Source: Minisyncoccota bacterium (lineage in GTDB: Bacteria; Patescibacteriota; Minisyncoccia; Phycocordibacterales; JACOZG01). Taken from it: DNA of 46,594 nucleotides. The stretch spans positions 1 to 46,594 of the forward strand of contig JAGVGK010000045.1 in the NCBI GenBank assembly GCA_020057185.1, written 5' to 3'. Positions 3,928-4,982 of this stretch are shown piece after piece (the first letter of the stretch is position 1; every line of letters starts with the position of its first letter). A model generated the notes under the pieces. It was given only the letters and a program-made list of their open reading frames with translations. It searched no databases and was not told where the DNA came from. Both the position numbers and the translations under genes were made by a program.

Positions 3928-4050
3928 CGAGCACAGCCGCGGGGTTGTTGACGTTCCAGTCGTTGTCGAGCCAGTTGTAGCTCCAGTTCCACCTGTCGCC
4001 GTTCCAGCAGAGGTAACGGACGTAGAGGTCGTCATCCGAGTTGCGGTTGC
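3928..4050 (-). repeat. DGR template repeat (TR), 123 bp
   Basis: Gap-free alignment with 4417-4539 (constant offset 489). 17 mismatches, all at T on + strand (A on the TR RNA strand). Contains nine AAC codons in the target frame. Confidence 0.96.
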
Positions 4051-4306
4051 GTACAAGGTATCATCTATGCCACTGCCCCCAGTTTACTAAAATAGCAAAC
4101 CAAAAGCTGTATCGTATTCGTGATCGATAATCACTTAATACCCTGCACCAAGTAGCTTCATTTTTTGAAGTGTCTGCATACACCACTCTACCCAAAACCA
4201 TAGTCGTGAGTATTCTCGATGTATGGATACTGGGTTCGGTAGCGAGCAACCTTGATCGCCCGCATATTCACCTACTACCGCAACTATATTATCACAAACA
4301 AAAAGA

Positions 4307-4348
4307 ACCCCGCATCTTATCTGTGGTTAAACAGAAAAAATGCGGGGT
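4307..4348 (-). terminator. hairpin between target gene and TR, likely terminator of the target transcript
   Basis: accccgcat (4307-4315) / atgcggggt (4340-4348), with inner ctgt/acag; followed on the minus strand by TTCTTTTTG. Confidence 0.6.
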
Positions 4349-4376
4349 CCGAGGACTAAGATCAAAGTGTCCAAGT

Positions 4377-4982
4377 TCAGTTTAGGACACAGTGACCGAG
4401 TCCACAGTGCGAACTTGCGAGCACAGCCGCGGGGTAGCTGACGCCCCAGTCGACGCCGAGCCAGTCGTAGCGCCAGAACCACCCGTCGCCGTACCAGCAG
4501 AGGAAACGGACGTAGAGGTCGCCATCCGAGTCGCGGTAGATAGTCCCCCAGAAGTAAACACGCTGGGTTTTCCATTCTTCGGGGATAAGCTCGGGATGCT
4601 TGAGTAGGAAGTCCAGCACATTGGCGTTCAGAACCCTCTGGCTCTTGAGTACCTCGCGTAGAACATCCCCCTTCATCCATTTGCCATCCTTCTGGTCGTC
4701 AGCGATATAAAGGGTGACGAGCGACTCTGTCCATTTGATAGGAACACCCTTCTGGTGTTCCTCCACCTTCCAACCCTCGGGCAGGAAGGGATCGGCGCAG
4801 CAGTCAATCACATGGTTGGCTTCCTTCGCCTCCCATATTCCCTTGAGGACATTGCGAACCCAAGCGAGATTGTCTCCCGTCGAGAGTTGCTTGACCAGCG
4901 CGGCATCCCATTTGCCCACTCGATTCATCGCCATTTCAAGCTCGTGCGCTTGACCGACACCCATTGTGAAGTCGTTAGACAT
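4377..4982 (-). CDS. DGR target protein with C-terminal C-type-lectin-like variable domain
   Basis: Contains the VR; RVYFWGTIYRDSDGDLYVRFLCWYGDGWFWRYDWLGVDWG. Start reassigned from GTG 5054 to ATG 4982, which is preceded by AAAGGAG. Confidence 0.92.
   Translation of the reverse strand: MSNDFTMGVGQAHELEMAMNRVGKWDAALVKQLSTGDNLAWVRNVLKGIWEAKEANHVIDCCADPFLPEGWKVEEHQKGVPIKWTESLVTLYIADDQKDGKWMKGDVLREVLKSQRVLNANVLDFLLKHPELIPEEWKTQRVYFWGTIYRDSDGDLYVRFLCWYGDGWFWRYDWLGVDWGVSYPAAVLASSHCGLGHCVLN
4417..4539 (-). repeat. DGR variable repeat (VR), 123 bp
   Basis: Pairs with TR 3928-4050. Invariant 18-bp 3' end (coding strand CCCCGCGGCTGTGCTCGC) is the IMH-like segment. Confidence 0.96.

What the first reader, a model, noticed from the sequence alone, without database searches (positions are those of the whole stretch)
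3928..4539. TR/VR pair: 17 of 17 substitutions at template adenines, and 9 of 9 AAC codons changed
TR 3928-4050 and VR 4417-4539 align without gaps over 123 bp. Every mismatch is at a TR adenine (coding strand): 9 A->G, 7 A->T, 1 A->C, out of 29 adenines. All nine AAC codons are altered, to Y, D, Y, F, D, V, G, S and Y. This is the A-specific mutagenesis signature of active DGRs; the extent of change with no background mismatch implies recent retrohoming.
Basis: seen in the sequence. Interest (0 to 1): 0.82.

Follow-up and report, generated by a model that had tools for sequence, protein, structure and literature searches.

The report
Patescibacterial DGR with 5' RNA scaffold
The window holds a genuine gene-diversifying retroelement of an ultra-small (Patescibacteria-type) bacterium, and its RNA template sits behind a large, strongly conserved, previously uncatalogued RNA structure on the opposite side from the one known in the textbook system, with the helper gene avd reversed on top of the template's end.

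Summary
The TR/VR pair is real. All 17 mismatches lie on template adenines (9 A>G, 7 A>T, 1 A>C; chance 10^-12.8), and all nine AAC codons changed. It is an ordinary member of the Patescibacteria DGR clade: over 96 loci, 1630/2907 A but 52/8633 non-A positions differ, and this locus (59% of A changed) is typical. "Recent" activity cannot be shown.

The less ordinary part is the template RNA. In 119 of 119 patescibacterial loci avd lies opposite to RT/TR/target; in 11 phage and plasmid DGRs it lies on the same strand. Between target gene and TR is a ~230-nt structured RNA leader with strong covariation, confirmed on held-out loci (95-97% of cells paired, covariation 0.70-0.71 against 0.25-0.28 shuffled), absent from Rfam and from phage and plasmid DGRs. 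A leader helix (P2) ends where TR begins; a second segment (P1) pairs with TR's 3' flank; a terminator antisense in avd follows. I infer a separately transcribed leader-TR-terminator RNA, mirror-image to BPP-1's avd-TR-spacer. Function is inferred; priority could not be fully checked because the main surveys were unreadable here.

The parts
4377..4982 (-). Target (variable) protein gene, 201 aa, VR at its C-terminal end; no Pfam/PHROG/NCBIfam family; uncharacterised family with homologs named in Vogelbacteria, Nomurabacteria, Magasanikbacteria etc.
   Evidence: AlphaFold2 with 50-sequence alignment pLDDT 91.7
4417..4539 (-). Variable repeat (VR), 123 bp
   Evidence: 17 mismatches to TR, all at TR A
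3927..4049 (-). Template repeat (TR), 123 bp; GC-rich 18 bp at its 3' end (3927-3944) identical in VR (IMH-like)
4051..4281 (-). Conserved structured 5' leader RNA directly upstream of TR (about 230 nt)
   Evidence: RNAalifold and pair counts on discovery loci; covariance models R1/R2 on held-out loci; no Rfam match
4137..4148 (-). P2 helix, 5' arm (GTGCAGGGTATT)
   Evidence: 12-bp helix, 97.2% of cells paired in 72 matches of the genome-contig set, 10 of 12 pairs with double changes
4051..4062 (-). P2 helix, 3' arm (GATACCTTGTAC), ends next to the TR start
4155..4163 (-). P1 helix, 5' arm (AAATGAAGC) in the leader, followed by conserved TACTTGG (4148-4154)
   Evidence: (helix 6)
3913..3921 (-). 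P1 helix, 3' arm (GCTTCATTT), just 3' of TR, partly antisense to the avd 3' end
   Evidence: 84.7% of cells paired vs 44-53% in slid controls, 56 loci; 7 of 9 subtype-2 loci fully complementary with differing sequences
3878..3912 (-). Terminator-like hairpin (3912-3888) plus U-tract, antisense within the avd 3' end
   Evidence: found 3' of TR in 81 of 96 loci vs 3 of 96 on the opposite strand; kept in L180 where no avd was found
4284..4294 (-). Candidate -10 element (TGATAATATAG) for a leader-TR transcript
   Evidence: sequence; no consensus -35 found by the scan, so weak
4307..4348 (-). Hairpin with T-run between target gene and leader (target-gene terminator)
   Evidence: I3; similar terminators in 72 of 96 loci
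3523..3918 (+). avd gene, opposite strand to RT/TR/target (start codon uncertain: 3523, 3526, 3532 or TTG 3565)
   Evidence: bAvd 1.5e-9, phrog_3206 4e-14, NF033474 7.6e-16
2532..3524 (-). DGR reverse transcriptase, 330 aa, with GNLTSQ motif and YADD
   Evidence: RVT_1 8.9e-24; phrog_1423 7.9e-107; best PDB relative 8ub7 (7e-46)
5153..5181 (-). Perfect sigma-70 consensus promoter (TTGACA-17-TATAAT) upstream of the target gene

Best explanation
A chromosomal diversity-generating retroelement of a Patescibacteria-type genome, lying between the divergent secD/secF and secG genes. The RT (with Avd) copies the TR RNA with errors at adenines, and the cDNA replaces VR in a small target protein, redrawing its presumed ligand patch. 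What differs from the model DGR (BPP-1) is the template RNA: TR is transcribed as its own unit from a start just after the target-gene terminator, through a ~230-nt folded leader, TR, and a terminator hairpin that lies antisense inside the reversed avd gene. In the folded RNA, leader helix P2 closes right at the 5' end of TR and leader segment P1 pairs right at its 3' end, so TR is held as a loop with defined ends; the leader takes the place, on the other side of TR, of the BPP-1 spacer that binds RT-Avd and primes cDNA. Shown: TR/VR A-specificity, gene arrangement, conserved RNA structure, terminator signal. Inferred: separate transcription, RT-Avd binding by the leader, P1/P2 as start and stop of cDNA synthesis.
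For: TR/VR. RT/Avd identity. Reversed avd: 44/44 discovery loci and 75/75 loci of the genome-contig set with an avd against 11/11 same-strand in phage and plasmid DGR records. Leader structure: 33 of 55 pairs compensatory; 64 pairs, 96.8% cells paired, covariation 0.549 vs 0.262 +/- 0.012 shuffled, 42-48% paired when slid. Held-out: R1 hits in 71 of 80 loci, none in 7 phage loci, 95.4% paired, 0.711 vs 0.284; R2 96.8%, 0.702 vs 0.247. TR starts at the leader's end, median -2 nt in 61 loci. P1. G.U 613 vs A.C 57 pairs fixes the RNA strand. Terminator. Orphan L180 keeps leader, TR and terminator without avd or RT. Sister genus: only 502 bp between secG and secD.
Against: No transcript data: the leader promoter is only a -10-like match without a clear -35, and read-through into RT cannot be excluded. 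P1 is less well supported than P2: a permutation test on held-out loci also gave a signal for the VR 3' flank (z -5.7 against -6.4 for TR), so relatedness inflates it, although the anchored slide test and the second subtype support it. The alignments A5 and A8 were fitted to the models, and five of the 80 genome-contig loci repeat discovery loci. 15 of 96 loci lack a terminator by my criteria. RT-Avd binding to the leader is untested. Two DGRs of this genome belong to a second leader subtype that the model hits only weakly.
Confidence: 0.78

Rival explanations
1. An ordinary DGR whose TR RNA works as in BPP-1: TR is co-transcribed with RT, and the priming spacer is the RNA 3' of TR (antisense avd); the leader is only a 5' untranslated region.
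For: RT is related to BPP-1 bRT; BPP-1 has its structured spacer between TR and brt (PMC12875486; 145 nt); 15 of 96 loci lack a detectable terminator.
Against: A terminator follows TR within 90 nt in 81 of 96 loci (3 of 96 on the opposite strand), but in 0 of 7 phage DGRs. The main non-coding room is 5' of TR, it is the part with strong covariation, and it ends at TR. Orphan units keep leader and terminator without RT.
Confidence: 0.12
2. The leader is a cis-regulatory element (riboswitch or attenuator) that controls TR/RT expression, not a scaffold for reverse transcription.
For: Structured 5' leaders before terminators are commonly regulatory (general knowledge); the element precedes a terminator hairpin.
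Against: P2 ends at the first TR base in most loci (median -2) and P1 pairs across TR with its 3' flank, which a regulatory leader would not need; orphan loci without RT retain it; no Rfam riboswitch match.
Confidence: 0.08
3. The cassette is a decaying relic; the A mismatches are old and the RNA structure is a leftover.
For: One sister DGR in the genome has its RT frameshifted by a (GA)15 tract; orphan TR units without RT exist elsewhere.
Against: In the window RT, Avd and target ORF are open and VR carries no stop codon and no non-A mismatch; compensatory changes in the leader show purifying selection across relatives.
Confidence: 0.05

Closest known systems
Bordetella phage BPP-1 DGR (mtd/avd/TR/brt)
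   Same: RT (33.6% identity by tblastn; best PDB relative 8ub7), Avd, TR/VR with A-only mismatches (19 A, 0 non-A for BPP-1), VR at the end of the target gene, GC-rich identical 3' end of TR and VR.
   Different: BPP-1: all genes on one strand, TR directly after avd, 145-nt spacer between TR and brt, no terminator after TR. Here: avd reversed, about 230-nt structured leader 5' of TR, TR followed within 9 nt by avd antisense and a terminator.
DGR clade 2 of Roux et al. 2021 (restricted to Patescibacteria, PMC8144416)
   Same: Host group and cell-encoded DGR; the 80 loci nearest by RT are, where named, almost all Patescibacteria, so this DGR very probably belongs to that clade (RT tree not rebuilt).
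   Different: That paper's main text has no hit for avd, accessory or orientation, so it does not describe the reversed avd; I saw no leader RNA in the passages read; its supplements were not available.
Retrons (msr-msd RNA)
   Same: Works-like only: structured RNA 5' of the template, with leader segments pairing on both sides of the copied part.
   Different: RT is of DGR type (GxxxSQ motif; phrog_1423, 8ub7); product is A-mutated sequence found in VR; no branching-guanosine or msDNA evidence.

Membership tests
Diversity-generating retroelement (DGR) | RT of the DGR lineage with [I/L/V]GxxxSQ motif | tested here: met
   LGNLTSQ and YADD in the translation; phrog_1423 7.9e-107; best PDB hit the entry set 8ub7 (that it is BPP-1 bRT is from my own knowledge)
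Diversity-generating retroelement (DGR) | TR/VR pair with mismatches at TR adenines | tested here: met
   17 of 17; 1630/2907 A vs 52/8633 non-A over 96 loci
Diversity-generating retroelement (DGR) | VR at the 3' end of a target ORF with C-type lectin (or Ig-like) fold | tested here: inconclusive
   VR position met; fold model confident (pLDDT 91.7), but no significant PDB match; many of the weak top hits are C-type lectins, E about 0.7-5, TM (target) 0.33-0.46
Diversity-generating retroelement (DGR) | Accessory protein Avd | tested here: met
   just below Pfam cut-off; below NCBIfam cut-off but E 7.6e-16
Diversity-generating retroelement (DGR) | GC-rich IMH shared by TR and VR 3' ends | tested here: met
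   18 bp CCCCGCGGCTGTGCTCGC identical in both
Diversity-generating retroelement (DGR) | RT-dependent mutagenic retrohoming observed | not testable with these tools
   needs cells, reads or reconstitution
BPP-1-type DGR arrangement | avd on the same strand, TR directly after avd, structured spacer between TR and RT | tested here: not met
   avd opposite in 119/119 patescibacterial loci; no free spacer 3' of TR, terminator instead
Retron | Retron-type RT and branched msDNA from an msr guanosine | tested here: not met
   RT files with DGR RTs; retron_St85 model scores 60.5 against a cut-off of 235; branching not testable here
Any Rfam RNA family | Match of the leader to a curated family | tested here: not met
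   no match at gathering threshold in this part of the window or at E<=1 in 3850-4320

The most novel reading that the evidence does not exclude
Patescibacteria DGRs use a permuted, retron-like template RNA: a 5' leader carries the RT-Avd binding and priming functions that in BPP-1 lie in the 3' spacer. P1 places the leader at the 3' end of TR to prime cDNA (possibly from a leader nucleotide), P2 stops it at the 5' end, and the RNA is a separate gene whose terminator is written antisense into avd, so that satellite leader-TR-target units without RT can exist.
Probability: 0.4. Interest if true: 0.85.

Novelty: new variant of a known kind. Interest (0 to 1): 0.62.

Why it matters
DGRs are unusually common in Patescibacteria (Roux 2021, PMC8144416), while the mechanism I could read about comes from one phage system. 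If template RNA here is built the other way round, the rules for what RNA a DGR reverse transcriptase needs must be widened. The covariance models give a direct handle to find template RNAs (also orphan ones without RT), to define TR ends exactly, and to design minimal DGR systems in which template RNA and RT are supplied apart. The reversed, terminator-carrying avd also offers an explanation for a conserved Avd C-terminal tail (KQNSP..GEK) as the shadow of an RNA element.

Tried and rejected
Permutation of P1 arms between loci as sole proof: rejected as insufficient because the VR-flank control also deviated; replaced by anchored slide test and subtype 2. Single-sequence fold of the target protein: useless (pLDDT 35); repeated with alignment. 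Fold search in PDB and viral libraries: nothing significant. DGR primary literature on CPR architectures and BPP-1 RNA (PMC5758913, PMC5436926, PMC11995886, NAR 2018, PNAS 2017): not held, so priority on avd orientation and leader could not be settled. First PHROGs call failed on a frame error.

Full report
Observation. The chance of 17 of 17 on A is 10^-12.8.

What it is. The minus strand carries a reverse transcriptase (2532-3524; RVT_1, phrog_1423 at 7.9e-107, best solved relative 8ub7, which I know as the BPP-1 RT), TR, and a 201-aa target gene with VR at its end (4377-4982). An Avd gene lies on the plus strand (3523-3918). Flanks are secD/secF and secG, so it is chromosomal; in a sister genus secG and secD are 502 bp apart, against 2.7 kb here, so the cassette occupies a site that is free elsewhere. 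The genome (783 kb, 46 contigs) has four such cassettes, each with its own A-specific TR/VR pair.

Is it unusual as a TR/VR pair? No. Over 96 non-redundant loci, 1630 of 2907 template A but only 52 of 8633 other bases differ; the fraction of A changed is 0.59 here, median 0.56. First A of AAC is changed in 78%, second in 48%, other A in 50%. The claim of recency therefore gets no special support from this pair, and no population data were available.

Gene arrangement. In 40 loci of relatives plus the four own loci, avd was opposite to RT, TR and target in 44 of 44. A scan of genome contigs with an RT alignment gave 80 loci, where named almost all Patescibacteria; avd was opposite in 75 of 75 that show one, the other five being cut off just upstream of RT. 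A few of these loci repeat genomes of the first set (five with TR). Eleven DGR records from other lineages, five phages (BPP-1, BalMu-1, VP58.5, Dulem virus 37, phiARM81mr) and six plasmids, have avd on the RT strand. In seven phage DGRs the TR-RT spacer is 105-157 nt with no terminator.

The RNA leader. Between target gene and TR the loci share a conserved stretch of about 230 nt. RNAalifold on 12 loci gave 55 pairs, 33 with compensatory changes. On 17 loci, including TR and its 3' flank, a 64-pair structure had 96.8% of cells paired, 43 pairs with double changes and covariation 0.549, against 0.262 +/- 0.012 in shuffles and 42-48% paired when slid by 1-3 columns. Two covariance models made from discovery loci only were then run on the genome-contig loci. 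R1 (3' half) hit 71 of 80 loci, each on the RT strand, the rest having RT close to the contig start so that little or nothing upstream is held, and none of seven phage or seven plasmid loci; pairs 95.4% formed, covariation 0.711 against 0.284. R2 (5' half) gave 55 hits, 96.8% and 0.702 against 0.247. These two alignments were fitted to the models, but slid versions fall to 31-59%. G.U outnumbers A.C 613 to 57, which says the RNA is the RT strand. R1 hits occur in 96 of 299 genomes of the order and 49 of 294 across the phylum. No Rfam family matches.

Helices at the borders of TR. P2 (12 bp, 97.2% paired, 10 of 12 pairs with double changes) ends where TR begins: median distance -2 nt in 61 loci. 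P1 joins a leader segment before the conserved ACTTGG to the bases just 3' of TR. In 56 anchored loci 84.7% of P1 cells pair against 44-53% when slid, with 32 double-change cells against 2-11. In the second leader subtype 7 of 9 loci have perfect 7-bp complements; the nine loci hold six different 7-mers. P1 is less certain than P2: swapping arms between loci also gave a signal for the VR flank, so relatedness contributes.

The terminator. A stem followed by a U-tract lies within 90 nt 3' of TR on the RT strand in 81 of 96 loci, against 3 of 96 on the opposite strand, 9 of 96 further inside avd, and 7 of 96 shuffled; in the window it is 3912-3888, inside the avd 3' end. The Avd tail KQNSP..GEK looks like its shadow, and in other loci similar bases are read in other frames (by eye). 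Locus L180, in a genome with no RVT_1 match at all, has target gene, leader, TR (11 A-only mismatches in 130 bp) and this terminator but no detectable avd or RT: the terminator belongs to the RNA unit, not to Avd. L176 is similar.

Mechanism, with status. Shown: A-specific TR/VR, gene order, conserved RNA structure, terminator signal. Inferred: TR RNA is a separate transcript (candidate -10 at 4284-4294 only); the leader recruits RT-Avd; P1 marks the start and P2 the end of cDNA synthesis. In BPP-1 a spacer 3' of TR recruits bRT-Avd, an internal adenine there primes, and a motif at the end of avd, 5' of TR, stops synthesis (PMC12875486). Here the structured part is on the other side of TR, so the simplest reading is a permuted arrangement of the same functions.

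Target protein. Homologs vary at the VR positions in a conserved frame of W, G and D residues. The model is confident, but comparison with PDB gives no significant match; many of the weak top hits are C-type lectins. C-type lectin fold is therefore likely but unproven.

Novelty. A DGR in Patescibacteria is known (Roux 2021, clade 2). I found no account of a reversed avd or a 5' leader RNA in the papers that could be read, but the central surveys and the BPP-1 RNA structure paper were not held. I rate it a new variant of a known kind.

Noticed in passing
L010 (G000:C15), L011 (G000:C44), L012 (G000:C28): Three more DGRs in the same 783-kb genome, each with own RT, reversed avd, target and TR/VR pair with A-specific mismatches; two use a divergent leader subtype (weak R1 hits E 0.002 and 0.01).
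   Followed up: partly
L012 6570-6720 (minus strand): The RT gene of the C28 DGR is broken by a (GA)15 dinucleotide tract that shifts the frame: a possible phase-variable switch, decay, or assembly error.
   Followed up: no
L180 2327-3540; L176 around 3028-3574: Orphan units of target gene + leader + TR + terminator with A-only TR/VR mismatches but no avd or RT nearby; genome G028 has no RVT_1 match at all. Satellite units served in trans, recent RT loss, or an assembly gap.
   Followed up: partly
L046 (G000:C3 17000-23000; match 19866-20330): A paralog of the target protein (31% identity over residues 14-161) that lacks a match to the VR part.
   Followed up: no
window 5060-5112: 24-nt inverted repeat (83% complementary, 5-nt loop) between the target-gene promoter and its start codon, role unknown.
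   Followed up: no
window 3522-3528: RT and avd start codons overlap head to head (if avd starts at 3523 or 3526), so each promoter must lie inside the other gene, or RT is read from upstream.
   Followed up: no
L145 3854-3962 and 9776-9884 (matching G074:C10 70444 and 76366): Two leader copies about 5.9 kb apart on one contig: possibly tandem DGR units.
   Followed up: no
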